64,000 bases of DNA, from positions 248,001 through 312,000 of the forward strand of contig CAHJWG010000003.1 of NCBI GenBank assembly GCA_903642215.1. The letters run 5' to 3'. Shown here one piece after another: positions 51,824 to 64,000 of the stretch. The notes under the pieces were generated by a model. That model did not search any database. It was not told the DNA's origin and saw only the letters and a list, made by a program, of their open reading frames with translations. Position 1 is the stretch's first letter, and every line of letters begins with the position of its first letter. This stretch comes from Sphingobacteriaceae bacterium (lineage in GTDB: Bacteria > Bacteroidota > Bacteroidia > Sphingobacteriales > Sphingobacteriaceae). The translations under genes and the position numbers were made by a program.

Positions 51824-53919
51824 TCCAGTTCGAGTACAATTTTTGAGCCTTTCGGGATCATGCTGCCGGCATCAACTGATTGCTTTACAACTGCCCCGCT
51901 GCCAATTACGGCAACTTTATAACCTGCATTTCCCATGATGAACAAAGCATCGCGCAAACCCATCCCTAACGCAGAAGGCACTGCTCCTTTTTTTGCAGAT
52001 GCTTCTTTTATGCCATCAAAACCTTCATTGCTATCGCTGTCGGTTTCTGTATTTTTTGTGTAAAGTGATTTTAACCCGAGTTTACTGTAAACTTCCTGCG
52101 TGGCTTTTTGCTGTCCGTTTTTTGCTTTAGGCGAAGCAGAATTTGCAGCAACATGAATGAGCGGCTGCGACTGGTTCATCTCCAGATCACTTGAATATAC
52201 TTTGTCTGCAATTTCCCTGAAAACCGGGCCGGAAACCGAAGCACCGTAATAATCACCTTTTGGGTCATTGATCACTACGATCATAGAATATTTAGGCTTA
52301 TCTGCCGGAAAATAACCTACAAAAGAAGCTTGATACTGGCGTTTGCCCCTGTAGCCTTTGTTTGCATCTGCAACCTGAGCCGTACCTGTTTTTCCGGCAA
52401 TTTTATATAATGGATTACGAACAAATTTTTTGCCACTGCCCTCCAAAACTACACCTTCAAGCATATTTTTGATCTTGCCTAAAGTAACATCAGAACAGAT
52501 TTTATCCTTAATTACCCTTGCTTCAAACTGCTCAATCGGGTTACCTAAACGCCTAATTTCTTTTACAAAAATCGGCGCAATATATTTTCCGTTGTTAGCA
52601 ACGGCATTATAAAACGATAACATTTTTAAAGGTGTCAGCTGCATTTCATATCCATAAGCCATCTGCGGCAAAGTCATGTTTTTATTCCAACTTTTATTTT
52701 CAGGATTTTTAATAACCGGCTGTGCTTCACCCGGAATTTGCAAAACTAATCTTTCATTTAAATGCCAGGCATATAAGTGATCGGTGAACTGAGATTGATT
52801 TTCGTGATAACTACTGTTAACAAGGTATGAAACTGCTGCATTTGATGATTCTTCAAAAGCCCTTTTTACCGTAACCACGCCAATACTTCCATGAGAATCT
52901 TTAATAATATGGCCGGGAATTTTATAAGTTCCGGTATTTACCAAAGTGCTGGTATCTACTTTATGATCTTCCAGCAAAGCCATATAAGAAGCCAATTTGA
53001 AGGTAGAACCGGGATCCTGGTTACCGGCAATGGCATAATTAAATTTTTCCTGGTAAACGCCGGTAGATACTTTTGTAAAATTAGCAACCGCCCGAACTTC
53101 GCCGGTTGCAACTTCCATCAAAATAACCGCGCCGTGGTCTGCATCACTTTTGATGAGTTGCTTTTCTAAAGCATTTTGCGCTACATCCTGGAAATTGACA
53201 TCCAGCGTGGAAATTATATCTGCGCCTTCTTTCGGGGCGATTTCAAAATCATCATTTACCGGTTTCCAAACGCCACCGGCAATACGCTGCATCAATCTTT
53301 TACCGGATTCTCCATTGATATAAGAAGTATAAGCACCTTCTAAACCTACCCCGTTAGAAACGTTTTCATTTTTGTAACCAATGGTTCTGGCTGCCAGCGA
53401 ACGGTACGGTAAAATCCTTTTATTTTTTTGAAGTACGATCAACCCTCCGCCATATTTGCCCATATTAAAAATCGGGAACTTTTTGATCTGCTTTAAATCC
53501 TGAAAGGAAACTTTACGTTTGATGAGTAAATATCTCGAACTATCCCGGCGGCCGTTGCGCAGATAACGGGAATAATCACGGGAGGATTTATCGCTAAAAA
53601 AAGCAGAAAGTTTCATCGCCAGCGAATCTACTTTACCATAAAAAACTTTATCATCGGTGATGGCACCATCCACCATATCCATGTGTAATTCGTACTCCGG
53701 AACAGATGTTGCCAGCATACTTCCATCCAAAGCAAAAATATTTCCACGGGCAGCTTCCACATTTACATAGCGGATAGAAAGGCTGTCCTGCATAGCTATC
53801 CACTTTTTACCCTGTAAAAACTGCACGCGGCATAATTGTACCATTACTGCTGCAGCCAGCAATACAATCAGCCCGAATGCGAGGTAAACTCGGAGCAGTA
53901 TGTTGGTTCTAATGCTCAT
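51820..53919 (-). CDS. ftsI: Division transpeptidase FtsI/PBP3 with C-terminal PASTA domain
   Basis: 699 aa class B PBP. One N-terminal membrane helix (about residues 8-28), pedestal domain, then transpeptidase motifs STFK (SxxK, DPGSTFKLASY), SSN (EESSNAAVS) and KTG (AGKTGTAQV). Residues about 650-699 form a PASTA domain (GLRDALFIMGNAGYKV ... GSKIVLELE), uncommon in Proteobacteria but usual in Bacteroidota FtsI. Cross-links septal peptidoglycan. Overlaps the FtsL-like gene by 11 bp. Confidence 0.95.
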   Translation of the reverse strand: MSIRTNILLRVYLAFGLIVLLAAAVMVQLCRVQFLQGKKWIAMQDSLSIRYVNVEAARGNIFALDGSMLATSVPEYELHMDMVDGAITDDKVFYGKVDSLAMKLSAFFSDKSSRDYSRYLRNGRRDSSRYLLIKRKVSFQDLKQIKKFPIFNMGKYGGGLIVLQKNKRILPYRSLAARTIGYKNENVSNGVGLEGAYTSYINGESGKRLMQRIAGGVWKPVNDDFEIAPKEGADIISTLDVNFQDVAQNALEKQLIKSDADHGAVILMEVATGEVRAVANFTKVSTGVYQEKFNYAIAGNQDPGSTFKLASYMALLEDHKVDTSTLVNTGTYKIPGHIIKDSHGSIGVVTVKRAFEESSNAAVSYLVNSSYHENQSQFTDHLYAWHLNERLVLQIPGEAQPVIKNPENKSWNKNMTLPQMAYGYEMQLTPLKMLSFYNAVANNGKYIAPIFVKEIRRLGNPIEQFEARVIKDKICSDVTLGKIKNMLEGVVLEGSGKKFVRNPLYKIAGKTGTAQVADANKGYRGKRQYQASFVGYFPADKPKYSMIVVINDPKGDYYGASVSGPVFREIADKVYSSDLEMNQSQPLIHVAANSASPKAKNGQQKATQEVYSKLGLKSLYTKNTETDSDSNEGFDGIKEASAKKGAVPSALGMGLRDALFIMGNAGYKVAVIGSGAVVKQSVDAGSMIPKGSKIVLELE

Positions 53920-54319
53920 CTTCTGTTATCGTAAGTTTTTGCGGAGGTTCTACAGAAGTTTTTAGCCCTAAAGTATCTGTTTTTTTTTCTACTTCTGTCA
54001 GCGTACTTCTGTAGGATAATTCAGCTTTTGTGGTTTTATAATCCCAGGTAAGTTCTTTTACCTGTTTGGATAATTTATCAATATCGCGGATGTTGTTTTC
54101 TGCCATGTGCCGGTTGGCAATATAAATCATCCCCAAAAACGCAACAAAAAATAAAAAAGGCAGCATCCGGGTAGCAGCTTCCGTAGAAACTACTCCTTTT
54201 TGAAGCAGCAAAGTGAAAAAATTCTCTGGAAGTTTACCAGCCGGCGGCTTCTCCTCCACAATCAGTTCCTTCTCAATCTCCTCTTCTTCCAGAATTTCTG
54301 CCCTTAAACGATTTGTCAT
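53909..54319 (-). CDS. ftsL: FtsL-like cell division protein
   Basis: 136 aa. Acidic cytoplasmic tail (EEEEIEKELIVEEKPP), a single membrane helix (about residues 49-66) and a periplasmic coiled-coil (DKLSKQVKELTWDYKTTKAELSYRST). Sequence alone is too weak for certainty, but topology, size and position between rsmH and ftsI match FtsL, which with FtsB and FtsQ activates FtsW-FtsI. Overlaps rsmH by 4 bp. Confidence 0.85.
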   Translation of the reverse strand: MTNRLRAEILEEEEIEKELIVEEKPPAGKLPENFFTLLLQKGVVSTEAATRMLPFLFFVAFLGMIYIANRHMAENNIRDIDKLSKQVKELTWDYKTTKAELSYRSTLTEVEKKTDTLGLKTSVEPPQKLTITEDEH

Positions 54320-55218
54320 CTTTTTACAGCTATTCTTAATTTAGCACTACGTGCACGGTTATTAATTTTTATTTCTTCTTCCGATGCGTTAATTGCACCC
54401 CTGCTTACCGCATCAAAAGGTTTTTGATCGTTACCAAAAAAATCTTTTTCTACTTCTCCGCGAAATTTTCCTTTAGAAATAAAATTCTTTACCAAACGGT
54501 CTTCCAGGGAATGATAAGACATTACTACCAGCCTTCCGCCGGAAATCAAAACTTCTGCCGATTGCAGCAAAAATTCCTGCAAAGCTTCCAGTTCCTGGTT
54601 TACTTCAATCCGTAATGCCTGGAAAACTTGTGCCAGATATTTATTTTCTTTTCCTTTCGGAGTTAAATATTGGATGGCATTTTTAAGCTCTGCAATTGTT
54701 CCGATCGGTTGATTCAGCCGCGCCGTTACTACTGTTTTTGCCAGTGTTTTTGCATTTTGTAATTCGCCGTACATTCCAAAAATTCGATGCAAATCTTCTT
54801 CACTATATGAATTGATGATTTTCTTGGCCGTTAAATCGCCGCTTTTATTCATCCGCATATCCAGATCGGCATCAAAACGAACCGAAAACCCTCTTTCAGC
54901 CTGATCAAACTGATGTGAAGAAACGCCCAGATCTGCCAAAATCCCGTTAACCGGAACCGCATCGTGCAAACGGCAATAATTTTTTAAATACCGGAAGTTC
55001 TGTTCTACAAAGGTGAAGCGTTGATCATTTAATACATTTTTCTGCGCATCCTCGTCCTGGTCAAAAGCGATTAAACGGCCATTCTTCCCCAACTTATTAA
55101 TAATTTGCCGGGAATGGCCGCCGCCGCCAAAAGTTACATCCACGTATGTGCCTTCCGGCTTAATAGCCAGCGCAGCAATACATTCCTGCAGCATTACGGG
55201 TGTATGATAGTTACTCAT
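54316..55218 (-). CDS. rsmH: 16S rRNA (cytosine-1402-N4) methyltransferase
   Basis: 300 aa. HTPVMLQECIAAL, the SAM-binding VDVTFGGGGHS, GILADLGVSSHQFD, and the late YHSLEDRLVKNF motif are typical of RsmH (MraW). It methylates 16S rRNA in the decoding centre. Start overlaps the mraZ end by 8 bp. Confidence 0.95.
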   Translation of the reverse strand: MSNYHTPVMLQECIAALAIKPEGTYVDVTFGGGGHSRQIINKLGKNGRLIAFDQDEDAQKNVLNDQRFTFVEQNFRYLKNYCRLHDAVPVNGILADLGVSSHQFDQAERGFSVRFDADLDMRMNKSGDLTAKKIINSYSEEDLHRIFGMYGELQNAKTLAKTVVTARLNQPIGTIAELKNAIQYLTPKGKENKYLAQVFQALRIEVNQELEALQEFLLQSAEVLISGGRLVVMSYHSLEDRLVKNFISKGKFRGEVEKDFFGNDQKPFDAVSRGAINASEEEIKINNRARSAKLRIAVKR

Positions 55219-55675
55219 TATTTCTTTTTGCCTGATTTCCCATTACTTCTTCGGCCAGCCTGGCAAAATTTTCCGGCTCGTTATCCAATTGTTCTTCGTA
55301 AGCACTTTTTGCCCAAACTTCTATTTTATTTAGGTTTCCTGTTAACACAACATCAGTTCCGATACCTGCATAATCAAGTAAAGCTTTCGGGAAAAGTATC
55401 CTCCCGGCAGCATCCGGTATTATTTCTGTTTCTCCTCTTTTAAAATATCGTACAAAATCACGATTCTTTTTTTCATACTGATTAAGCTTGCTCAACTCAT
55501 CCATAATCAAATCCCACTCTTTGCGCGGATAAATAACCAGATGTTTTTCAAAACCACGATTAATAACAAGGCCTTCTCTTTCAGCTTCCGGAAGCTGTTT
55601 CTTGAGGTTTACCGGGATCATCATTCTCCCTTTGGCATCAAGCTTACATTCAAATTCACCTAAAAAATGTGGCAT
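55211..55675 (-). CDS. mraZ: Transcriptional regulator MraZ
   Basis: 154 aa with two AbrB-like SpoVT folds: LGEFECKLDAKGRMMIPVNL (first) and AAGRILFPKALLDYAG (second). MraZ forms oligomeric rings that bind tandem repeats in front of the dcw cluster and control it. Here three matching repeats lie 46-69 bp upstream of the start. First gene of the cluster. Confidence 0.95.
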   Translation of the reverse strand: MPHFLGEFECKLDAKGRMMIPVNLKKQLPEAEREGLVINRGFEKHLVIYPRKEWDLIMDELSKLNQYEKKNRDFVRYFKRGETEIIPDAAGRILFPKALLDYAGIGTDVVLTGNLNKIEVWAKSAYEEQLDNEPENFARLAEEVMGNQAKRNNE

Positions 55676-55720
55676 TGCCCCAGTATGGGTAATATTTAAT
55701 GAGTAAAAGTAATTATTTTA

Positions 55721-55744
55721 CCACCTTTTACCACAAATCCCCAC
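55721..55744 (-). promoter_or_regulatory. MraZ operator: three GTGG repeats at 10-bp spacing
   Basis: On the minus strand GTGG occurs at 55744-55741, 55734-55731 and 55724-55721, each followed by a G/T and an A/T-rich spacer, with an exact 10-bp period. MraZ boxes in other bacteria are tandem TGGG- or GTGG-type repeats with this period, so an autoregulatory site is very likely. Confidence 0.75.
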
Positions 55745-55819
55745 TAAAAGTTTTCAACAATCTTTTTTTTGATTTTTTTGGGGTTGAACAAGCATTAGCA
55801 ATACTGTTTTTATGGCATA

Positions 55820-55845
55820 AAAAAGCCCGGCACTTTTGGCCGGGC
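55820..55845 (-). terminator. Terminator between the DUF6526-like gene and mraZ
   Basis: AAAGCCCGGC-acttttg-GCCGGGC hairpin; on the minus strand it is followed by a run of Ts. It ends the transcript of the gene at 55936-56373 before the dcw promoter. A 13-base word variant ATACTGTTTTTAT lies next to it (55801-55813). Confidence 0.85.
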
Positions 55846-55935
55846 ATAATTGCTTCTTCTGTAAGTTGGAAGATTTTTACTTTTCGGGATTGATAAATCC
55901 TAAGCTTTAAACTTAGAATTTGAAATTGATCCGGA

Positions 55936-56373
55936 TTATAACCTCATATTATCTGCCTGCCAGTTCTTAATTGATTTTTTGATATCGTCGCCTTTTAAAT
56001 TGTCCTTCAAAGCACGCTCCAGCAGATCTTTAAATTCGTTATCATCGGCAAATCGTAAAGCAGCAATTTGTCCGAATGATAATTTGCTTTCCAAATCGCC
56101 CGTACTTTTTCCATACAATTCAAAATAGCGTAAACGAAATTCGAGCCTGACGATTCGATCCTGATTTCCTAACGCATAATGTTGCCTCAGCATCATAGCG
56201 AGGTACAAAATGCAAAAAGAAAGAAGGCTAAACATAAGCCATTCGATTTTTCGGTTTTCATCTCTGAAAGAATTTATCAATCCAAAAACAACCATCAATA
56301 AAACCAATGGCAGGAAAATAAAATGATGCGGAACATAATAACGAATGTGATTTTTGTAATTCTGCTTTTTCAT
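55936..56373 (-). CDS. DUF6526-like membrane protein
   Basis: 145 aa. Basic N-terminus (MKKQNYKNHIRYYVPHH), two membrane helices (about residues 17-35 and 45-62) and a cytoplasmic helical part with RIVRLEFRLRYFELYGK and LSFGQIAALRFADDNEF. It matches my memory of the DUF6526 family of Bacteroidota, whose function is unknown. Single gene upstream of the dcw cluster. Confidence 0.65.
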   Translation of the reverse strand: MKKQNYKNHIRYYVPHHFIFLPLVLLMVVFGLINSFRDENRKIEWLMFSLLSFCILYLAMMLRQHYALGNQDRIVRLEFRLRYFELYGKSTGDLESKLSFGQIAALRFADDNEFKDLLERALKDNLKGDDIKKSIKNWQADNMRL

Positions 56374-56774
56374 TATAAAAGATTATAATTTGATATTAAT
56401 TTGTTTTAAAAATCCACATTACATCTTGAGTGAGCTTTTTAAGATCGACGTTTCGACAAGGAATTGTTAATCTGAAATCCGTTAGCCGGAACAAAAGCTA
56501 AAGATACATTTAATTGCTGATGCTTCTTTTACCTTACAAAAATTGGTATTGCATCATTTTAAATTAATTAACTATCAAACGCCTGCCATTTTTTAGGTGG
56601 TAAAAGAAGCACAGAAAAGTTGAGTAGATTTTAAACATGCTTTTTTTGTGGAAATCTTTTTATAATCACCGGAAAAAGTTAAAGGTTTTATGCAAATGGA
56701 GGTTGATATTGAAGCTAATTAAAGTTTTGTCCTTCCCCACTTACATAAAACCTTTTACAAGCAGTTCTTCTAAA
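56374..56774. other. Intergenic region with an inverted pair of 13-base words
   Basis: 401 bp without a credible gene. ATGCTTCTTTTACC (56520-56533) and GGTAAAAGAAGCAC (56599-56612) pair across about 65 nt. The 68-aa plus-strand frame at 56637-56843 is probably chance, because it runs into the 3' end of the opposing SDR gene. Confidence 0.6.
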
Positions 56775-57494
56775 CTAAGGGTTCAGTTTACTATAATATT
56801 CGGCAATAGTTTCGTTGTTTGCTGCTGCCCTTGTTTCACTTGAGCCGAATGTCAATTCAATTTTACCTTCTTTTAATTGTTTAAATATGGCTTCCACAAA
56901 ATCACTAACAGTAGGAAGATCATTGTGAACGCCATGCCCGCCAAGGTCTGTGTTCAATGCCGGCGGTATAATTTCGATAACTTCGGTATTTGTTGATTTT
57001 AACTGGTGCCTCAGCGATAATGTGAATGAACGCAGGAATGCTTTTGTACCACAATAAACAGGTACTTTTGAAAACGGAACAAAAGCCAAGCCCGAAGTAA
57101 CATTCATAATTGTATCCAACTTCAGGTTTAAAAACAGTTTTGTTAGATGGATTGGTGCTGTGATATTAATCGCAATTTCATCATTTGATTTTTTGTAAAA
57201 GTCATCATCAGAAACACTCATCCAATTTTGGATACCCGCATTATTAACCAATACATTCAAATCCGGGTGATTTTTTGCAATCCAATTAAAAAGTTCAATG
57301 CGTTCCTGTTCATTTGACAAGTCAGATACCTTTGTTATCACCGAAGGAAACTGAGTTGCAACCTCTTTTAATACAGATTCCCTTCTTCCGCAAACGATAA
57401 CGGTATTATCTTCATTAATAAACCTTTCTGTTAACCCTAAACCGATACCACTTGCGCCGCCGGTAATCAGTATTTTGTTCTTTGCTATTTTCAT
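56775..57494 (-). CDS. Short-chain dehydrogenase/reductase
   Basis: 239 aa classical SDR. The cofactor motif TGGASGIGLG (about residues 11-20), NNAG at about 87-90, a catalytic Ser in VTSGLAFVPFSK and the YxxxK pair in YCGTKAF are all present. It resembles the DltE-like branch. It reduces or oxidises an unknown carbonyl or alcohol with NAD(P). The AraC-type gene upstream on the same strand (75-bp gap) may control or accompany it. Confidence 0.85.
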   Translation of the reverse strand: MKIAKNKILITGGASGIGLGLTERFINEDNTVIVCGRRESVLKEVATQFPSVITKVSDLSNEQERIELFNWIAKNHPDLNVLVNNAGIQNWMSVSDDDFYKKSNDEIAINITAPIHLTKLFLNLKLDTIMNVTSGLAFVPFSKVPVYCGTKAFLRSFTLSLRHQLKSTNTEVIEIIPPALNTDLGGHGVHNDLPTVSDFVEAIFKQLKEGKIELTFGSSETRAAANNETIAEYYSKLNP

Positions 57495-57568
57495 TTATTT
57501 AAAATTTATAATGCAAAGTTAAAAAGGCATAACGGTTGTTCTTTGGTGAATAACACAGAACTTTAAAA

Positions 57569-57928
57569 TCAATTATTTTTCAAATTCTCTTTTCTATACT
57601 GGCTCGGGGTTTGGTTAACGTAGGATTTAAAAAATTTGGTAAAATTAGATGGATCATAAGTTAACAGTAAAGCAATTTCCGTAATACTTTTTGTATGTTG
57701 TTCCAACAAAGATTTTGCTATTTCGATGATTTTATGTTCGTAAAAATAGCAGGCTGACTTTCCGGTTGACAATTTAACAGTATTACTTAAATGAGTTGGA
57801 TGGATGTGCAAGAGTTCTGCTATTTCATTAATTTCTTTTATCTCATTCGCCCGGCCTTCCACTATATCAGTTAAGTGATTATCCAAAGCTGTAAAATATT
57901 TGTTTGTTATTTCTTCTTGTCTTGTCAT
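57569..57928 (-). CDS. AraC-type helix-turn-helix protein (DNA-binding domain only)
   Basis: 119 aa. The C-terminal 90 residues form the AraC double helix-turn-helix (EIAELLHIHPTHLSNTVK, then SITEIALLLTYDPSNFTKFFKSYVNQTPSQYRKE). The N-terminal 25 residues are too short for a ligand domain. Such compact AraC proteins act as stand-alone regulators. It probably works with the SDR gene 75 bp downstream. Confidence 0.85.
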   Translation of the reverse strand: MTRQEEITNKYFTALDNHLTDIVEGRANEIKEINEIAELLHIHPTHLSNTVKLSTGKSACYFYEHKIIEIAKSLLEQHTKSITEIALLLTYDPSNFTKFFKSYVNQTPSQYRKENLKNN

Positions 57929-58036
57929 TTTAATTAGTTTGTATTAGAGAATTGCCGCTAATGACTTGGAATTTTGTATTAGGAATAAGCAAACGTCAGC
58001 TTCATCCATAATTGAAAGTTTGGCAGCAAAAGTAAA

Positions 58037-58178
58037 ACAGCCCAAAGTTAAATTTAAATCTTAATGTTGATACTGTTTTTACCGGCTAAAAAATTTTCCT
58101 TCTGCCGGAACTGAAGCAAAATAATAAAATAAAAGATGACGTTTAATTCGTCAGCCGGTTTTTTGCCAAACCAATGTT
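58037..58178 (-). repeat. Cassette repeat A (attC-like), left half decayed
   Basis: Right half is intact: CTGAAG..., then the arm GGTTTTTTGCCAAACC and the core ATGTT (ends 58178). The left arm GGCTTGGCGAAG is not recognisable. At the repeat tip the word is ATACTGTTTTTAC (58070-58082) where most copies have ATGCTTCTTTTAC. It ends the array on the left and is probably its oldest site. Confidence 0.75.
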
Positions 58179-58357
58179 ACAAGTAGTTTATTTCCTAAAA
58201 CTTCAGATATAAAATTTAAGCTTTTCAACTTGTCGCTTTTAGGCAAAATATGCTTTGAATATTTAAGTTGCCAATTCGGAAATGTCAATTGTTTTTCGTC
58301 ACTAAGTTCAGCAAGTCTTGCAATTATTTTTGCACAAAGTTCGGCAGATTTGATTTG
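58151..58357 (-). pseudogene. Cassette 1: remnant of a gene, no start codon
   Basis: Cassette 1 spans 58176-58547. On the minus strand an open frame of about 68 codons with normal-looking protein sequence (SAELCAKIIARLAELSDEK ... FPNWQLKYSKHILPKSDKLK) follows a stop at 58358 and has no ATG. It ends at TGA inside repeat A. The upstream half of the cassette is non-coding and holds inverted words ATGCTGTATTCAC (58410-58422) and ATAAAAACAGCAT (58455-58467). Cassette ends GTTACAAGTAGTTTA and TAAATTACTTGCAAC are complementary at 13 of 15 positions. Confidence 0.5.
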
Positions 58358-58544
58358 TTACCAAAACTTTACTTGTCGCTTTTTATTAAACTTAAAAATC
58401 GCATGAACAATGCTGTATTCACCCGATAAAAATTTGACTTACGATTTTACACCGATAAAAACAGCATTGAAAAAGTCAGCGAAGCTTTTGGCGTTTATCA
58501 GATTCAGCTCAATGTTCAGCACTTAGTTCGGTTAAATTACTTGC

Positions 58545-58731
58545 AACGTTCAAGGCTTGGCGAAGAACTGGAATTTGAAACTCGTCCGCCGAAACCAAAG
58601 CTAAATTTATAAACAAATGCTGATGCTTCTTTTACAAGCTAAATTTTATTCCTTCCGCTGAAACTGAAGCAAAATAGCAAAATAGAAGTTGATGTTTATT
58701 TCGTCCGCCAGTTTTTTGCCAAACCAATGTT
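58545..58731 (-). repeat. Cassette repeat B (attC-like)
   Basis: 187 bp from AACGTT to AATGTT. The arms GGCTTGGCGAAGAACTGG and CCAGTTTTTTGCCAAACC pair with a few mismatches and a 3-nt bulge. The tip word is ATGCTTCTTTTAC (58623-58635). Confidence 0.88.
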
Positions 58732-59082
58732 ATATGTAGTTTAATTTTTTACTCGCAAAATTAAACTTTGCTTTTTTGTAAACCAGTCCGCAAGCCAAAC
58801 TTTACTGAGCAATATTAAGTTTGAAATTTCCAAGTCGAACGTTTTATTTGTGCAAAAGTTGTAATCATTTTTTTTACAAACTTTGCTTTTTTGATTGAAA
58901 AAGAAGTAAGCAAACAATGCTGTTTTTACCAGGTAAAAATTAGTGCGCCGAAAGTCCGCCAAAAAAGTTTGCTTAAAACAGCATATTAAAAAGTCGGCAA
59001 AAATTAAAAGTCAAACTTGCAATTGTTAAAAGTTCAGCTTGCAAGTCAGTCGGCGAAATGCAGGTCTTAAGTTACACATAAC
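58729..59082 (-). other. Cassette 2: non-coding cassette
   Basis: Bounded by GTTATATGTAGT (58729) and GTTACACATAAC (ends 59082), near-complements. It shares long stretches with cassette 5, and the end AGTCGGCGAAATGCAGGTCTTAA is also shared with cassette 7. It holds the word ATGCTGTTTTTAC (58917-58929) and a partial partner AAAACAGCAT (58976-58985) that can form a hairpin. The 73-aa minus-strand frame at 58741-58962 is not convincing: it is rich in Phe/Lys/Asn and crosses the hairpin arm. Confidence 0.65.
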
Positions 59083-59259
59083 GGAAAGGGCTTGGCGAAG
59101 AACTGGAAATAGAAACTCGTCAGCCGAAACCAAAGTTAAATTTATAAACAAATGCTGATGCTTCTTTTACAAGCTAAATTTTATTCCTTCCGCTGAAACT
59201 GAAGCAAAATAGCAAAATAAAAGTTGAATAACTTCCGTCAGCCAGTTTTTTGCCAAACT
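59080..59259 (-). repeat. Cassette repeat C (attC-like), cut by the IS element
   Basis: Left core ATAACGG and arm GGGCTTGGCGAAGAACTGG are intact, with the tip word ATGCTTCTTTTAC at 59158-59170. The right arm stops at GCCAAAC (59259), where the IS3-family element begins, so the recombination core of this copy is lost. Confidence 0.85.
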
Positions 59260-59315
59260 GTAACCCTCCCTCTTTTCGGACAGATATTTAAAGGACTAAT
59301 TTATTCCAATTTATA

Positions 59316-60110
59316 TTAAGGTTGTTTAATTTGTTTAAAATGATTTGGTGTTAATCCGCCTAATGCTTCATGCGGCCTTTTGTAGTTGTAATCTTCCATC
59401 CATTCATCAGCTAATTGCTGTACCTGGCCAATATCCTCAAATAAATAAGCGTCCAGGATATTTTCTCTAAAAGTTCGGTTGAACCTTTCGATGTAACCAT
59501 TCTGCATCGGTTTTCCGGGCTGGGTATGTCTGATCGTAATTCCTTTCTGCGCGCACCAATCCCTGAATTCTTTACTGACAAATTCTGGCCCGTTATCTAC
59601 TCTGATACATACCGGTTTACCTTGTTCTTTGATAGCATATTCCAATATTTGTGTTACCCTGGCTGCAGGCATACTGTAAGCGGCTTCTACGGTAATAGCC
59701 TGCCGGTTATAATCATCGATAACCTTCAGCGTCCTGAACTTTCTTTTGTTCACCAGCACATCACTCATAAAATCTACAGACCACATTTCACCTGACTGCC
59801 CTGGTACTGCAAGCGGTACTTTTATCCTGGCTGGCACACGTCTTTTTGTTTTTTTACGCCTATTCATACCCAGCAACAAGTAAACCCGGCGAACCCGTTT
59901 ATAATTCCACAAAAAGCCCTGCTGACGGATTCGGCTGTAATACAGATCCTGGCCTTCGGTCGGATGTCTGTCAGCCAGCCAGTTTAACTTATCAATCGTC
60001 TCGGAATCATCTCTGATGTTCTTATAATAAAACATGGATTTAGGTAGCTTTACTACCCGGCAAGCCCTGCTAATACTTACCTGACGGAATTCCAACAGAT
60101 AGGTAACCAT
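59316..60110 (-). CDS. IS3-family transposase OrfB (DDE integrase core)
   Basis: 264 aa from the internal ATG; the active protein is probably the OrfAB fusion made by frameshifting. HTH_21-type start (SISRACRVVKLPKSMFYYKN), then the rve core with catalytic Asp in MWSVDFMSD, Asp in CIRVDNGPEFVSK and Glu in NGYIERFNRTFREN. It cuts and joins the element's ends. The reading frame upstream of the ATG stays open through VLKPYQRKD back to the slip site. Confidence 0.93.
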   Translation of the reverse strand: MVTYLLEFRQVSISRACRVVKLPKSMFYYKNIRDDSETIDKLNWLADRHPTEGQDLYYSRIRQQGFLWNYKRVRRVYLLLGMNRRKKTKRRVPARIKVPLAVPGQSGEMWSVDFMSDVLVNKRKFRTLKVIDDYNRQAITVEAAYSMPAARVTQILEYAIKEQGKPVCIRVDNGPEFVSKEFRDWCAQKGITIRHTQPGKPMQNGYIERFNRTFRENILDAYLFEDIGQVQQLADEWMEDYNYKRPHEALGGLTPNHFKQIKQP

Positions 60111-60130
60111 ATCCTTGCGCTGGTAGGGCT

Positions 60131-60397
60131 TTAGAACTTTTTTGCCAAGACATCCTTTAACAAACTATGATCTAAAGCCAGCTCTGCATACATGTGCTTC
60201 AGCTTACGATTTTCTTCTTCCAGCTCTTTCAACCGTTTCAGTTCCTGGCTGTCCATGCCGGCATATTTCTTTCGCCAGTTATAAAAAGTGGATTTGTGGA
60301 TGCCCAGTTCCCGGCAAATCTGTGCATGATCCCGACCGCCTTCGTACTCCTTGAGTGCTTTTACGATCTGTGCTTCGCTAATAATTGATTTCTTCAT
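60131..60397 (-). CDS. IS3-family transposase OrfA (helix-turn-helix)
   Basis: 88 aa. SEAQIVKALKEYEGGRDHAQICRELGIHKSTFYNWRKKYAG is the HTH_Tnp_1 domain that recognises the ends. It is followed by a leucine-zipper-like coiled coil (LKRLKELEEENRKLKHMYAEL). It ends LAKKF at a stop three nucleotides after the slip site. Confidence 0.93.
   Translation of the reverse strand: MKKSIISEAQIVKALKEYEGGRDHAQICRELGIHKSTFYNWRKKYAGMDSQELKRLKELEEENRKLKHMYAELALDHSLLKDVLAKKF
60137..60143 (-). other. Programmed -1 frameshift heptamer A-AAA-AAG
   Basis: On the minus strand GCA-AAA-AAG-TTC-TAA ends OrfA. Slipping back one base on AAAAAAG gives GTT-CTA-AAG and continues in frame into OrfB. This is the standard way IS3-family elements make OrfAB. 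Confidence 0.88.
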
Positions 60398-60457
60398 ATT
60401 CCGACTGTTAAATTTAAAGACTTTTCGCCTTTCAAATAGTCCGATTTTTAGGAGGGG

Positions 60458-60532
60458 TTACACCTCAAAATTTACTTCTTGGTCTGGTGTTATTTTGCCT
60501 GTTCGAACTGAATAATAATTCCTCTTTATCAT
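60458..60532 (-). pseudogene. Cassette 3: gene start truncated by the IS element
   Basis: The minus-strand ATG at 60532 is 45 bp from the cassette core GTTATGCCC (60577-60569). It encodes MIKRNYYSVRTGKITPDQ plus five residues and then runs into the IS end, stopping after one more codon. The YYSVRTGK start resembles the beginning of some HEPN/AbiJ-type Bacteroidota proteins as I remember them, but 23 residues are too few to be sure. The rest of the gene and the left half of its repeat are missing. Confidence 0.55.
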
Positions 60533-60574
60533 TGTCTATTATCGTCCTGTTTGTGTCGTTCTAAAATTGGGCAT

Positions 60575-60761
60575 AACGGACAAGGCTTGGCGAAGAACTG
60601 GTATTTGAAACTCGTCAGCCAAAACCAAAGTTAAATTTATAATCAAATGCCAAAGCTTCTTTTATCAGCTAAATTTTGTTCCGTCCGATGAAATTGAAGC
60701 AAAATAGCAAATTAAAAGCTGATGTTTATTCCGTCCGCCAGTTTTTTGCCAAACCCATGTT
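60575..60761 (-). repeat. Cassette repeat D (attC-like)
   Basis: 187 bp from AACGGACAAGGCTTGG to CCAAACCCATGTT. The tip word is altered to AAGCTTCTTTTAT. It follows (minus strand) the VapBC cassette. Confidence 0.87.
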
Positions 60762-60771
60762 ATGGGTAGTG

Positions 60772-61182
60772 CTACTTCTTCGCTAAAGTTGTCCAATCTT
60801 CAATAACAATATTATCAAGCCTGCTTAGATGCGCAGTATTATTTGTTACTATAATCATTTCATTTGCAACTGCTGTAGAGCCAATCAAAATATCGAAATC
60901 GTCAATTAGCAACCCTTGCTTTCTTAATTTTGCTTTTTCTTTTGCATAAATATCCAATGAGTTGTAAATAGGAATAATTGCAAATTTTGGTATAAATGCT
61001 TCTACAACTATTCGCATAGCTTCAATGGTCTTACTATTTTCAATTCCATATTTTAATTCAGCAACTGTAATTTCAGAAATGAAACAATTTTGTTCGCCTA
61101 CTTCTGCAATTTTCTTATTTAGCTCATACTGTCCTTTTATGAAAAATATGCAAATGTTTGTGTCAAGCAAATATTTCTTCAA
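60772..61182 (-). CDS. vapC: VapC-type PIN-domain toxin
   Basis: 136 aa PIN-domain ribonuclease. Acidic metal-binding residues are visible at D7 (LLDTNI), E42 (VAELKYG) and D97 (IDDFDILIGSTA), with the VTNNTAHLSRL motif following. VapC toxins cut tRNA or rRNA. It overlaps the antitoxin gene by 4 bp, and its TAG stop is 11 bp from the cassette core, so the pair fills cassette 4 (60759-61499). Stand-alone toxin-antitoxin pairs are typical cargo of chromosomal integron cassettes, where they may stabilise the array. Confidence 0.88.
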   Translation of the reverse strand: MKKYLLDTNICIFFIKGQYELNKKIAEVGEQNCFISEITVAELKYGIENSKTIEAMRIVVEAFIPKFAIIPIYNSLDIYAKEKAKLRKQGLLIDDFDILIGSTAVANEMIIVTNNTAHLSRLDNIVIEDWTTLAKK

Positions 61183-61424
61183 AGTATTTCAGTGTTACGG
61201 TTAAAAACTCTTGAAGCTCTAAGTTCTGCGATGATTTCTTCTGCGGTTTCGTCAGATTTGTATGCGCCAAAAAGAGATTCTAGGGACATATTTGGAGTTG
61301 TTTCCATTTCTTTCAAAGATTGCGAAAGTTTTGAAATAAGGTCAAGCTTGCTGTCTGAGTTAAGATTTTTTAAAAACCCGAAGTAATAGTCAGCAAGGCT
61401 AATATGTTGAGTTGAGGAATTCAT
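61179..61424 (-). CDS. vapB: VapB-type antitoxin
   Basis: 81 aa, directly before and overlapping vapC. The N-terminal half (LADYYFGFLKNLNSDSKLDLISKLSQSL) is a helical, dimerisation-like region, and the C-terminal part (EEIIAELRASRVFNRNTEIL) is the sort of tail that wraps into a PIN active site. Sequence alone would not name it; the operon with vapC does. Start is 75 bp inside the cassette. Confidence 0.75.
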   Translation of the reverse strand: MNSSTQHISLADYYFGFLKNLNSDSKLDLISKLSQSLKEMETTPNMSLESLFGAYKSDETAEEIIAELRASRVFNRNTEIL

Positions 61425-61496
61425 ATAAATATTTTTCCTAAGTTACAGTGTTTCGCATAAGTTTTCAAATACAGCGGTTGGAAAAGTATTACACAC

Positions 61497-61683
61497 AACA
61501 GAAAAGGCTTGGCGAAGAACTGGAATTTGAAATCCTTCCGCCGAAACCACCGTTAAATTTATAATAAAAAGTTGATGCTTCTTTTACCAGCTAAACTTTG
61601 TTCCGTCCGCTAAAACTGAAGCAAAATAGTAAAACAAAAGTTGACGTTTATTCCGTCAGCCAGTTTTTTGCCAAACCAATGTT
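61497..61683 (-). repeat. Cassette repeat E (attC-like)
   Basis: 187 bp, AACAGAAAAGGCTTGG to CCAAACCAATGTT, tip word ATGCTTCTTTTAC (61575-61587). Arms as in copy B. Confidence 0.88.
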
Positions 61684-61997
61684 AACTGTAGCTTAATTTT
61701 TAAGCACAAAACAAGACTTTGCGTTTTTACCAAGTTAGTCCGTCCAACCAAACTTTGCTGAACAATATTAAACGTTAGACTTCCAAGTCGAGCGTTTTAA
61801 TTGCGCAAAATTGAAAGTTTCGATTTCACAAACTTTGCTTTTTTGGTTGTAAAAATAAGTCAGCAAATAATACTGTTTTCACCAGATAAAAATTAGTCTG
61901 AAAAAAATTCCGCCGAAAAATTCAGTCAAGTTTACATTTGTGAAAATTTCAGCTTGCAAGTCAGTCGGCGAAATGGAGGTTTTAAGTTACAGTTAAC
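61681..61997 (-). other. Cassette 5: non-coding cassette related to cassette 2
   Basis: Bounded by GTTAACTGTAGC and GTTACAGTTAAC; the first ten bases of one end are the exact complement of the other. Internal blocks such as ACTTCCAAGTCGA, CAAACTTTGCTTTTTTGRTTG and AGCTTGCAAGTCAGTCGGCG are shared with cassette 2. It holds a variant word ATACTGTTTTCAC near 61868. No start-to-stop frame of useful length. It may encode an RNA or be a decayed gene family. Confidence 0.65.
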
Positions 61998-62182
61998 GTT
62001 CAAGGCTTGGCGAAGAACTGGAAATAGAAATCCTTCCGCCGGAACCAAAGCTAAATTAATGTTCAAATGTTGATGCTTCTTTTACCAGCTAAATTTATGT
62101 TCCTTCTGCTGAAACTGAAGCAAAATAACAAAACATAAGTTGATATTTATTCCGTCAGCCAGTTTTTTGCCAAACCAATGTT
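61995..62182 (-). repeat. Cassette repeat F (attC-like)
   Basis: 188 bp, AACGTTCAAGGCTTGG to CCAAACCAATGTT, tip word ATGCTTCTTTTAC (62073-62085). Confidence 0.88.
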
Positions 62183-62198
62183 GGTGGCAGTTTTTCTG

Positions 62199-62684
62199 TC
62201 AAGCTGGATTATTCAATCTAAATATTTTTTCAACTTTTGTTTGGTCAATACTTTGTACAGCCTTGTTCAATTTTTCCTTGTCAATAGTGTCGGAAAAATA
62301 AAATGTATAGACTTCAAGATTTTTCATTTGTTCTTGTGTGTGTGAATAATCTTCAATGCCAAATTGCTCGGTTAACATGTCGTCAAATATGTCAAAAAGC
62401 TCGGAATCTTCAATTCGTAAAATTGGTATTCCAATTTCAGTATAAAAAAGCGTTACATGAGGAATTGTATGTTTTACTTTAAAGTTAGGGAAAATCAGTT
62501 TGTAAAATGTATCAGCTCTTTCATTTTCAATAACTAAATTTAATTTTTTGAGCTGGTGGAGCGTTGTTTCAAAATCGTTTTCGTTATCAAAGTTAACAGC
62601 AACAAAATCTCGAATGTTTATATAGTAGTCTTGTCCTTTGTGGTCGTACAAATAGTCAAGAATATGTTTTTGCTTGTCTGTCAT
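62199..62684 (-). CDS. Cassette 6 gene: unknown protein with winged-helix-like start
   Basis: 161 aa. The first 60 residues (QKHILDYLYDHKGQDYYINIRDFV ... TTLHQLKKLNLVIEN) look like a small winged helix. The remainder is alpha/beta with acidic patches (EDSELFDIFDDMLTEQFGIEDY). No family recognised. It fills cassette 6 (62180-62713): its ATG lies 29 bp inside one end and its stop 9 bp before the other boundary tract, the tight packing expected of a mobile cassette. Confidence 0.7.
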   Translation of the reverse strand: MTDKQKHILDYLYDHKGQDYYINIRDFVAVNFDNENDFETTLHQLKKLNLVIENERADTFYKLIFPNFKVKHTIPHVTLFYTEIGIPILRIEDSELFDIFDDMLTEQFGIEDYSHTQEQMKNLEVYTFYFSDTIDKEKLNKAVQSIDQTKVEKIFRLNNPA

Positions 62685-62710
62685 GCAAGGTCTACGTTGA
62701 AATTGCCACC

Positions 62711-62897
62711 AACGTTGAAGGCTTGGCGAAGAACTGGAATTTGAAACTCGTCAGCCCGAACCAAAGTTAAATTTATAATCAAAAGCTGATGCTCCTTTTA
62801 TCAGCTAAATTTTATTTCGTCTGCCGAAACTGGAGCAAAATAGCAAAACAAAAGCCGATGTTTAATTCGTCCGCCAGTTTTTTGCCAAACCAATGTT
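62711..62897 (-). repeat. Cassette repeat G (attC-like)
   Basis: 187 bp, AACGTTGAAGGCTTGG to CCAAACCAATGTT. The tip hairpin is perfect here: AGCTGAT-gctccttttt-like loop-ATCAGCT (62788-62810 region). The 13-base word is changed by one base to ATGCTCCTTTTAT. Confidence 0.88.
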
Positions 62898-63243
62898 GGC
62901 TGTAGTTTATTTTAAAAGTGTAAAATACAGATTTGCAACTTTTAAAATTTATCATTTGTCCGCTGAAAACAGTTCGAACAACCCAAGTTTGCGGATTAAA
63001 AAATCCGGCAATAATTTTTGTCTGCGAAAAAGATAAAAAGTTCGTTTTGTCTTTGTAAGAATTTCAAGTCGTGTTTAGGATTTAAAAATTCAACTTGCAA
63101 TGCTGTTTTTACCAACTATAATTTTGTCTAACGAATTTATCCGATAAAAACAGCATTGGAAAAGTTGGCGCAAGTTTAGAAACAGTTTTGTCAAAAGTTT
63201 TGCAAATCAGTCGGCGAAATGCAAGTCTTAAATTACAGCCAAC
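62895..63243 (-). other. Cassette 7: non-coding cassette with an internal hairpin
   Basis: Bounded by GTTGGCTGTAGTTTA and TAAATTACAGCCAAC (14 of 15 complementary). It contains ATGCTGTTTTTAC (63100-63112) and ATAAAAACAGCAT (63144-63156), flanked by CA and TG, giving a 15-bp stem and a 31-nt loop. The end GTCGGCGAAATGCAAGTCTTAA is shared with cassettes 2 and 5. A 67-aa frame at 63109-63312 crosses into the repeat and is rejected. Confidence 0.65.
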
Positions 63244-63429
63244 GTTCAAGGCTTGGCGAAGAACTGATATTTGAAACCCGTCAGCCAAAACCAAAGTTAA
63301 ATTAATATTCAAATGATGATGCTCTGTTTTTATCTGCTAAATTTTGTTCCTTCCGCTGAAACTGAAGCAAAATAGTAAAACAAAAGCTGATGTTTATTCC
63401 GTCAGCCAGTTTTTTGCCAAACCAATGTT
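63241..63429 (-). repeat. Cassette repeat H (attC-like)
   Basis: 189 bp, AACGTTCAAGGCTTGG to CCAAACCAATGTT. The tip reads ATGCTCTGTTTTTAT, a blend of the two forms of the 13-base word. Confidence 0.88.
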
Positions 63430-63439
63430 GGCGGTAGTT

Positions 63440-63967
63440 TTATTTTCTTTCAATGTTTACAATCTTAAATTCTTCAAGTATCAACAAAAAACATTTCACT
63501 AACTCGCAAAATCTCAAGCTATCATTTTTACCATTTTTGTATTGATATTGAATCATTACATCTACTCTATGTCCAACTGGCTCTAATAATGTAAGTGCAA
63601 TTAAAGAGATCTTTGGTTCTGTGTCAAAATAATGCTTGAATTTGTTATTAAGAAGTCGTAACTCTTTAAGACTTGAATATTTTTCTTCAAGTTTCAATTT
63701 ATCAAATGTCCCTTTACGGCTTTTATAAATAGATTCAAGTATGGAATACATATCCTTAGTCAATGTTTTTATTGTTGGAACTATTTTATTAAAAGCTGTT
63801 TCGCATTCAGGAGAAATCCAACTAAGTTTTTTGTCAACTACTGTTTTTGGCACAAATTCGTTGTCACTGTCGCCGATTTGAACATTATATAGTAAATTAA
63901 TTTTATTTAAAACGTCTTCAATGTCATGTGTCAAATAATAAGGTTGATTGAGATCGTAAATGTTCAT
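63440..63967 (-). CDS. Cassette 8 gene: unknown protein
   Basis: 175 aa, soluble, mostly helical, Lys/Leu-rich. DLNQPYYLTHDIEDVLNKIN begins it; a central LRLLNNKFKHYFDTEPK has the look of a HEPN-like N..KH segment but lacks the full RxxxxH motif. No family recognised. The ATG is 29 bp from the cassette core and the stop is 11 bp from the other core. The same start spacing occurs in cassette 6, which suggests a common arrangement for expression. Confidence 0.7.
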   Translation of the reverse strand: MNIYDLNQPYYLTHDIEDVLNKINLLYNVQIGDSDNEFVPKTVVDKKLSWISPECETAFNKIVPTIKTLTKDMYSILESIYKSRKGTFDKLKLEEKYSSLKELRLLNNKFKHYFDTEPKISLIALTLLEPVGHRVDVMIQYQYKNGKNDSLRFCELVKCFLLILEEFKIVNIERK

Positions 63968-63981
63968 GAACTATGCTGTCC

Positions 63982-64000
63982 AAAATTACCGCCAACGTTG
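63982..64000 (-). repeat. Start of cassette repeat I (attC-like), cut by window edge
   Basis: AAAATTACCGCCAACGTTG: the cassette-8 end tract followed by the first bases of another repeat. It shows that the array continues past the right edge. Confidence 0.75.

What the first reader, a model, noticed from the sequence alone, without database searches (positions are those of the whole stretch)
58037..64000. Integron-like cassette array in a Bacteroidota chromosome, with unusually long attC-like sites
Seen: nine copies (two partial) of a 187-189 bp imperfect palindrome, spaced by eight cassettes of about 320-740 bp. All intact genes lie on the minus strand, each filling its cassette, with the repeat after the stop codon. 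The repeat arms pair with a 3-nt bulge, like the extrahelical bases of attC. Known: integron cassettes are gene plus attC, and chromosomal arrays carry toxin-antitoxin pairs and orphan genes in one orientation. Inference: this is an integron or a cluster of attC-like sites lacking a nearby integrase, with a repeat type longer than usual attC sites (about 57-141 bp) and a core (GTTRNNN) that departs from GTTRRRY. Orientation places any integrase to the right of 64 kb.
Basis: partly seen in the sequence, partly recalled or inferred. Interest (0 to 1): 0.92.

Follow-up and report, generated by a model that had tools for sequence, protein, structure and literature searches.

The report
Integrons without the integron integrase domain
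Bacteria of the class Bacteroidia carry rows of small gene cassettes, separated by sites predicted to fold into hairpins, beside a recombinase that lacks the domain defining integron integrases, and this pair likely works as a second kind of integron that would choose its DNA strand by G-T wobble pairs.

Summary
The repeat array is real: six intact sites, one cut by an IS element and two partial ones in the window; 46 blastn matches in the genome. It is an integron-like cassette array, but not one run by a known IntI. Each cassette's first bases are the reverse complement of its own last bases (6.47 of 7 in 30 cassettes; shuffles 3.60, maximum 4.5), an integron hallmark. Another contig starts such an array directly after a tyrosine recombinase. 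That enzyme is XerA-like and lacks about 43 residues at the I2 insert of integron integrases, held in print to be needed for cassette capture. Homologues occur in 136 of 295 genomes of the class; canonical IntI in 1 of 295. Arrays follow the enzyme in many Bacteroidota (17 of 75 named loci; 30 modules downstream, 3 upstream). Their attC-like sites keep attC-like geometry but mostly lack the extrahelical bases that I2 docks; near those positions they carry A.C mispairs, which are G.T wobbles on the other strand, making that strand's hairpin more stable (45 of 50). I infer an integron-like system with its own strand-choice code. Recombination itself is untested; many close homologues show no array.

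The parts
58042..58178 (-). partial attC-like site, distal end of the array
   Evidence: blastn match C3:306042-306178; motif end at 58178
58179..58544 (-). ORF-less cassette; ends complementary in 6 of 7 bases
58545..58731 (-). attC-like site
   Evidence: L032:2545-2731
58732..59079 (-). ORF-less cassette of the recurring ~350 bp family; ends complementary 6 of 7
59080..59265 (-). attC-like site, outer end lost at the IS element
   Evidence: row begins GGTTAC instead of AAC
59316..60397 (-). IS3-family transposase ORFs inserted in the array
   Evidence: Pfam rve/rve_3 and HTH_Tnp_1
60575..60761 (-). attC-like site
60762..61496 (-). toxin-antitoxin cassette: VapC-like PIN toxin 60772-61182 and small ORF 61179-61424 (partner by position only); same cassette, 88% over its full length, near the recombinase in G001
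   Evidence: (VapC 129 bits, cut-off 140); ends complementary in 5 of 7 only
61497..61683 (-). attC-like site
61684..61994 (-). ORF-less cassette of the recurring family, ends complementary 7 of 7
61995..62182 (-). attC-like site
62183..62710 (-). cassette with 161-aa gene of unknown family (62199-62684), ends complementary 7 of 7
62711..62897 (-). attC-like site
62898..63240 (-). ORF-less cassette, ends complementary 7 of 7
63241..63429 (-). attC-like site
63430..63993 (-). cassette with 175-aa gene of unknown family (63440-63967), ends complementary 7 of 7
63994..64000 (-). start of the next attC-like site, continuing beyond the window on C3
   Evidence: C3:311983-312186

Best explanation
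The window holds the distal part of an integron-like cassette array that is likely built and shuffled by a XerA-like tyrosine recombinase lacking the integron-specific I2 insert. SHOWN: arrays of cassettes whose two ends are reverse complements of each other, with sites and genes in one orientation; a recombinase gene whose 3' end points at the first cassette on contig C15; the same enzyme family followed by the same kind of module in many Bacteroidota; sites with attC-like spacers and a long stem, with few extrahelical bases but fixed A.C mispairs. INFERRED: the recombinase joins the platform site after its own gene (attI-like, G|TT) to a folded single strand of the cassette site; because A.C on the gene-sense strand is G.T on the other strand, that bottom strand would fold better and be the one used, which would keep captured genes in one orientation. 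The extra N-terminal module would help to hold the folded DNA (speculative).
For: End complementarity: 30 cassettes (the IS-broken one not counted), mean 6.47 of 7, 20 perfect, 26 with at least 6; 10,000 shuffles mean 3.60, sd 0.24, maximum 4.5; ends facing each other across a site match 3.36 (25 pairs). Recombinase directly before such sites on C15, in G001 and in other genera. Strict modules: 30 downstream in 430 kb, 3 upstream in 553 kb (75 of 80 named loci); none in window 1-55000 on either strand, none in 5 shuffles; none in 12 loci of canonical IntI. I2 region missing. Mobility: two coding cassettes shared over their full length between G000 and G001 (88% of 741 nt, 78% of 698 nt), for the first similarity falls at the next GTT; exact duplicate of cassette plus site in G012 beginning at the G of GTT. 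Fold: in 22 sites chosen by their flanking cassettes alone, without any stem or spacer rule, the best 10-pair stem has at least 8 pairs in 19 and the 3' spacer is 2-4 nt longer in 19. A.C at base 8 of the cassette ends in 30 of 30 (own) and 21 of 22 (other genera), at stem position 12 in 80 of 81 and 15 of 22, under a selection blind to them; other strand more stable in 45 of 50 and 80 of 81 arm pairs; single-base bulges in 20 of 23 canonical sites versus 12 of 50 here and 2 of 81 in the own genus, bottom strand.
Against: No recombination event was observed; strand use is argued from predicted stability alone. A.C outnumbers C.A 70 to 8, though both give G.T on the bottom strand, so the mispair may be read as a motif rather than as a strand code. 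On the top strand the program puts one-base bulges into 73 of 81 own-genus sites. Many homologues show no module: 16 of 20 looked at in the class sample (17 best-scoring ones not seen before plus 3 from single-contig genomes; 3 of the 16 on stretches under 3.2 kb), among them ten at 53-59% identity on long stretches; the Chryseobacterium plasmid copy has no chain. G299 carries a different repeat array beside its enzyme that does not fit the module. C3 and C15 are separate contigs, and the two full cassettes on C15 have no genes. The C9 array runs into a chromosomal flank with no tyrosine recombinase found on C9. Three modules lie upstream of the enzyme (L132, L142, L143). A canonical IntI does occur in the family (G029, two copies).
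Confidence: 0.77

Rival explanations
1. The sites are recombined as ordinary double-stranded DNA, Xer/dif-like: the enzyme is a Xer relative without I2, and the palindromes are paired binding sites of a symmetric dimer.
For: XerA is the best NCBIfam model (190 bits, below its cut-off of 220); I2, said to confer single-strand recombination, is missing; the A.C bias over C.A could be direct base reading.
Against: Stems keep pairing while sequences are unrelated between genera, also at positions 10, 11 and 13-16 that were not used for selection (34-42 of 50 Watson-Crick) and in sites chosen without a stem rule; stems average 15-18 pairs with asymmetric spacers like attC, and sites reach 190 bp, longer than two binding arms need; mispairs favour one folded strand.
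Confidence: 0.15
2. A canonical integron whose IntI is missing from this incomplete genome; the Xer-like enzyme nearby is a bystander and the array is a CALIN.
For: Genome 92% complete in 68 contigs; CALINs are common (PMC9024848, passages).
Against: Canonical IntI in 1 of 295 genomes of the class while the I2-less enzyme with modules behind it recurs in unrelated genera; sites lack the extrahelical bases that canonical sites in sister classes have.
Confidence: 0.04
3. The palindromes are transposable repeats (MITE-like) scattered between genes.
For: Repeats are palindromic and a few solitary copies lie elsewhere (C3:148071, C4, C5).
Against: The two ends of each cassette match each other as inverted copies, the two sides of a repeat do not (3.36 of 7); the duplicated unit is cassette plus site.
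Confidence: 0.03

Closest known systems
Integrons (IntI, attI, attC cassettes)
   Same: One-orientation cassettes, cassette boundary at G|TT, cassette start complementary to its own R'' end, platform next to the recombinase gene, short 5' and longer 3' central spacer, C before GTT (49 of 50 here; G on the bottom strand in most attC sites, PMC2727003 passage), toxin-antitoxin and unknown genes in cassettes.
   Different: Recombinase outside the IntI clade and without the I2 insert; its gene points at the array with its 3' end; extra N-terminal module; core not RYYYAAC/GTTRRRY; complementarity of cassette ends 7 nt plus a fixed A.C mispair; few extrahelical bases.
XerA / archaeal Xer recombinases
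   Different: Below the XerA cut-off (190 against 220 bits); has an N-terminal module and sits by cassette arrays.
CALIN (cluster of attC sites lacking an integrase)
   Same: The stretch in this window, taken alone, has sites and no integrase.
   Different: The same genome holds the recombinase beside the same kind of site.
Integron-like subgroup of tyrosine recombinases (PMC8138268, passages)
   Same: That paper notes that the insertion is not fully conserved in this subgroup.
   Different: No cassette arrays without the insertion are described in the passages seen.

Membership tests
Integron | Integrase of the IntI family with the additional (I2) domain | tested here: not met
   TIGR02249 184 bits in two pieces, cut-off 265; residues 184-247 of VchIntIA face 274-294 here; DR-to-HxLRH gap 58 against 100-102 in five canonical IntIs; IntI is a separate clade
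Integron | Tandem cassettes, gene plus attC, in one orientation | tested here: met
   four of eight cassettes in the window are ORF-less
Integron | Start of a cassette complementary to its own R'' end (boundary G|TT) | tested here: met
   boundaries
Integron | Core boxes RYYYAAC / GTTRRRY | tested here: not met
   Only AAC/GTT, C before GTT and GTTRNNNGYAA-like starts are kept
Integron | attC fold with unpaired central spacer between R and L boxes | tested here: met
   Rule-free set: 19 of 22 sites with a stem of at least 8 of 10 pairs, 19 of 22 with a 3' spacer 2-4 nt longer; canonical sites by the same fold as the 50-site set 2-3/6 nt in 18 of 23. The 50-site set was selected with 3 and 5-7 nt, so it is no independent test
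Integron | Extrahelical bases in the L stem | tested here: not met
   Canonical (23 sites, four loci): 5'-arm bulges at stem positions 7 (14), 11 (7), 15 (12); here (50 sites) mostly 1x1 mispairs, at 7 and 12/14, few bulges
Integron | attI site next to the integrase gene | tested here: inconclusive
   In 20 arrays printed the first cassette starts roughly 30-280 bp after the gene; the sequence before it is alike in G000 and G001 (about 40 bp), with only a short GCGTATA in G012 and G005
Integron | Excision and integration of cassettes by the integrase, bottom strand folded | not testable with these tools
   Only indirect: shared and duplicated cassettes, fold energies
XerA (NF040815) | Score over the curated cut-off | tested here: not met
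   190.1 against 220 bits
MITE-like repeats | Matching flanks on the two sides of the repeat | tested here: not met
   Tested as inverted matches only: they lie across the cassette, not across the repeat; direct duplications were looked at by eye
CALIN | Two or more attC sites with no integrase nearby | tested here: inconclusive
   C3 ends inside the array at 315744; C15 carries the recombinase; contigs not joined
HARP domain (N-terminal module) | Significant sequence or fold match | tested here: inconclusive
   Foldseek top rows 4o66 but E 0.79; Pfam HARP 0.015 in 1 of 22, DUF5710 best 1.3e-5 in 9 of 22

The most novel reading that the evidence does not exclude
A second lineage of integrons, typical of Bacteroidia, in which a XerA-type recombinase without I2 captures cassettes through folded single strands, and in which strand choice is written as G.T wobble pairs (A.C on the gene-sense strand) close to the helical positions where canonical attC sites carry their extrahelical bases. 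Enzyme and site differ together: no I2, few extrahelical bases. Either a living relative of the state before I2 was gained, or a convergent invention.
Probability: 0.6. Interest if true: 0.93.

Novelty: new variant of a known kind. Interest (0 to 1): 0.88.

Why it matters
The origin of integrons is framed as the gain of the I2 helix by a Xer-like ancestor: I2 is said to be needed for cassette capture, to confer single-strand recombination and to occur in no other protein, and intermediates are said to be lacking (PMC7790495, introduction and passages read). A cassette platform with attC-like folded sites but no I2, and with few of the bases that I2 docks, gives a natural system in which to test whether I2 is needed at all, how strand choice can be encoded otherwise, and why a standard finder that requires an IntI-specific profile (PMC9668308, passage) reported only one complete integron in Bacteroidetes, in Salinibacter (PMC9024848, passage). 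It would also put a reservoir of unseen gene cassettes in a common class of bacteria.

Tried and rejected
Rejected: MITE or transposon repeats. Known RNA family: none in Rfam at E 0.1 in window 55000-64000. Canonical IntI in this genome: none over cut-off. Defence genes in seven cassette proteins: none in PADLOC. attC-like sites unusual by length: no (one doubtful 237-nt case in L111 with no good stem). Covariation within the genus: too conserved to inform (20 pairs, 1 with a double change). Whole-site fold energies are unremarkable against shuffles for the one own site folded on both strands (z -1.2 and -1.4) and mixed elsewhere (one of two sites clearly better than shuffles in each of L096, L098 and L099). 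N-terminal module as a HARP domain: only a lead. Canonical IntIs of G029: no repeats or canonical sites found in 19 kb around each. The chain search gave a few chance chains in AT-rich stretches (L034, L106, L109), so the later strict module search was used for counts; five of the 80 named loci (L154, L157, L163, L165, L170), with under 240 bases after the enzyme, were left out of it. Own-genus sites picked on the wrong strand by the first pattern were dropped before later counts (93 unique to 81). The top strand of own-genus sites shows one-base bulges in 73 of 81; I read these as the program's way round the A.C mispairs. The canonical set (23 sites) was picked from repeats of four loci by a pattern that includes the base next to AAC/GTT, so that base cannot be compared on it. 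The label 'AACG' in my note 6 was read on the bottom strand and is corrected. My first count of shared cassettes cut one cassette short and missed a second shared coding cassette; one search replaces it. Literature: nine searches; as far as titles, starts of abstracts and the passages opened show, none describes cassette arrays with an I2-less recombinase or wobble-coded attC strand choice. Preprints and most subscription papers are not held, so this is no proof of absence in print.
Full report
What is there. The window is G000:C3:248001-312000 of a 3.84-Mb, 68-contig genome. Between 58042 and 64000 lie nine copies of an imperfect palindrome (six intact, 187-189 bp; one cut by an IS element; two partial), separating eight units. 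The contig goes on for 3.7 kb with more copies and ends inside the array. Contigs C9, C14 and C15 carry further copies; 46 blastn matches in all. Genes in the cassettes run on the minus strand here: a VapC-like PIN toxin with a small partner ORF and two genes of no known family; on C3 beyond the window and on C9 there are DUF6934, DUF4160, an HTH/Gp49 pair, an ABM-domain protein and DUF3885. Four of the eight cassettes in the window have no convincing gene.

Why cassettes and not repeats. In 30 cassettes of the own genome (the one broken by the IS left out) the seven bases after the starting GTT match the reverse complement of the seven bases before the closing AAC in 6.47 positions on average (20 perfect, 26 with six or more). 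When the ends are dealt out anew the mean is 3.60 (sd 0.24, maximum 4.5 in 10,000 shuffles), and across the palindrome it is 3.36 in 25 pairs. This is how integron cassettes look, because the first bases of a cassette complete the site of that same cassette when it is a circle.

The recombinase. On C15 a 367-aa tyrosine recombinase (L035:1945-3048) ends about 230 bp before the first cassette start (L035:3279); the sites there have the orientation in which, on the other contigs, genes read away from it. The two full cassettes on C15 hold no gene of their own; in G012, G005 and G034 the cassette genes do read away from the enzyme. It scores 190 bits for XerA (cut-off 220) and 184 bits for integron integrase (cut-off 265) in two pieces; aligned to the Vibrio cholerae integrase (PDB 2a3v) it has 19 residues where that has 62, that is, it lacks the stretch with the I2 helix. 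The gap between the KGKKDR-like and HxLRH motifs is 56-67 residues in the homologues where the motif pair was found, against 100-102 in five canonical IntIs where it was. In a tree of 82 proteins the 16 canonical IntIs form one clade (SH-aLRT 100) and none of the 24 array-linked proteins falls inside it (quick method); the order of the deep branches is not resolved. The predicted model (mean pLDDT 82.7) has 2a3v as best Foldseek hit, then XerA. An N-terminal beta-beta-alpha-beta-beta-alpha module (residues about 17-75) precedes the core; by eye three copies stand in tandem in G005, G034 and G029. Its relation to known domains is open.

How widespread. The own enzyme finds homologues at E 1e-50 or better in 136 of 295 genomes of the class, while the canonical integrase model passes its cut-off in 1 of 295. 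Among 60 relatives one more genome (G029) has it. In a phylum-wide sample canonical IntI passes in 84 of 296 genomes, of which one (G094) is marked as of this class. So canonical integrons are common in sister classes and rare in this one. Carriers include Winogradskyella ursingii, Seonamhaeicola aphaedonensis, Algibacter onchidii, Rufibacter, Algoriphagus ornithinivorans and Flavobacterium aciduliphilum; one of the 17 is labelled Spirochaetota (L169), the others Bacteroidota. Against this: of 20 homologues from the class sample (the 17 best-scoring not seen before and 3 from single-contig genomes) only four had modules (three of the other 16 lie on stretches under 3.2 kb), and a Chryseobacterium plasmid copy showed no chain. 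G299 has a tandem set of about 250-nt palindromic repeats beside its enzyme that does not fit the definition, yet one of its genes is a DUF6934 protein like one on C9. The family is therefore wider than this site type, or many platforms are empty.

Mobility. Of 31 own cassettes 24 find no match in the array stretches fetched from the two same-genus genomes (G001 54 kb, G002 46 kb). Seven match in G001: five belong to the ORF-less family, two carry genes and match over their full length, the toxin-antitoxin cassette of this window (88% of 741 nt) and the DUF6934 cassette of C9 (78% of 698 nt). The toxin-antitoxin cassette lies near the recombinase in G001 and near the distal end here; similarity falls from 0.92 to 0.56 at the next GTT. 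In G012 a cassette with its site is present twice; the two copies agree in 0 bases to the left of GTT and in 526 to the right. These are traces of units moving as cassettes; no event was seen directly.

The sites. Within the genus the site is 81% conserved (71 sequences), so covariation says little. Between genera the sequences are unrelated and mostly 59-190 bp long. To avoid circularity I took 22 sites that lie between two recognised cassettes, with no rule on stem or spacer: in 19 the best 10-pair stem has at least 8 Watson-Crick pairs, and in 19 the 3' spacer is 2-4 nt longer than the 5' one. In the larger set of 50 modules, selected on 3 and 5-7 nt and on the first eight pairs, pairing at positions 10, 11 and 13-16, not used in selection, is Watson-Crick in 34-42 of 50. 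The same fold procedure on 23 canonical sites from four loci of sister classes returned the textbook picture: spacers of 2-3 and 6 nt (18 of 23) and single extrahelical bases on the 5' arm at stem positions 7, 11 and 15 (14, 7 and 12 sites). The I2-less sites have few such bulges; instead they have 1x1 mispairs, mostly at 7 and 12 (or 14 where the program starts the stem two pairs earlier; my reading). Single-base bulges on the bottom strand occur in 20 of 23 canonical sites, in 12 of 50 here and in 2 of 81 of the own genus (73 of 81 on the top strand of the own genus).

The mispairs are of one kind. On the gene-sense strand A.C and C.A mispairs number 78 and G.T and T.G 14 in 50 sites x up to 16 positions, although the selection accepted G.T and penalised A.C in the first eight. 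With a selection blind to them, base 8 of the cassette ends is A.C in 21 of 22 modules and in 30 of 30 own cassettes, and stem position 12 is A.C in 15 of 22 and in 80 of 81 own-genus sites. A.C on one strand is T.G on the other, a wobble pair that folds. Accordingly the other (bottom) strand is the more stable in 45 of 50 arm pairs, 43 of 50 whole sites and 80 of 81 own-genus arm pairs, while the canonical sites show no such difference (-13.9 and -13.8 kcal/mol).

How it likely works. In canonical integrons the bottom strand of attC is used, and strand choice is mostly due to the first extrahelical base (PMC2727003, abstract and passages), which the I2 helix docks (PMC7790495, introduction). 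Deleting the extrahelical bases there lowers bottom-strand recombination 6.2-fold and raises that of the top strand about 50-fold (PMC2727003, passage). Here the enzyme lacks I2 and the sites lack most extrahelical bases; near those positions lie pairs that fold on the bottom strand only. I infer that the recombinase acts on the folded bottom strand and that the wobble pairs do the work of strand choice, so that genes enter in the sense that the platform reads. The excess of A.C over C.A (70 to 8) shows that orientation matters too, which a pure stability code does not need; direct reading of the wobble by the protein is a fair addition. Whether this is the state before I2 or a parallel invention cannot be told from the unresolved deep branches.

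What is not shown. Recombination, strand use, the platform site (alike only within the genus), expression, and the physical link of C3 to C15. The tests that would decide are given under next steps. The finding should be called integron-like: it fails defining tests of integrons (the IntI domain, the core boxes, the extrahelical bases) and passes those on cassette layout, end complementarity and spacer geometry.

Noticed in passing
window 59259-60463 (approx.): IS3-family element with ends like TGTAACCCTCC / GGAGGGGTTACA (by eye) inserted at the tip of an attC-like site; the outer end of that site and part of the next cassette are gone.
   Followed up: partly
window 56469-56532: A 64-nt stretch 69-78% like the inner part of the attC-like sites, about 1.5 kb outside the array: probably a decayed site.
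   Followed up: no
window 53909-55675: The array lies about 2.4 kb from a dcw-type cell-wall cluster (MraZ by Pfam; RsmH-like and FtsL-like by position and reading, not by a call).
   Followed up: no
L032/L033/L035/L214/L105, ~350 bp cassettes: A recurring ORF-less cassette family, 66-86% alike (one further ORF-less pair 94%), in both G000 and G001, with internal palindromes; may carry a promoter or RNA (compare gene-less promoter cassettes, PMC11014356, start of abstract in a listing only).
   Followed up: partly
L035:3225-3280 and L089:6510-6570: Before the first cassette a conserved stretch with TACTTTTG / TAGATTTG, like the Bacteroidota -7 promoter element (recalled, from no call): a candidate cassette promoter.
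   Followed up: no
L257:1213-8464 (G299): A different palindromic repeat array (~250 nt units) beside a homologous recombinase; may be a further site type.
   Followed up: partly
L210 and L211 (G029): Two canonical IntI genes without detectable cassette arrays in a genome that also holds the I2-less enzyme.
   Followed up: partly
L169 (MAG labelled Spirochaetota): One I2-less recombinase with a module outside Bacteroidota: transfer or mis-binning.
   Followed up: no
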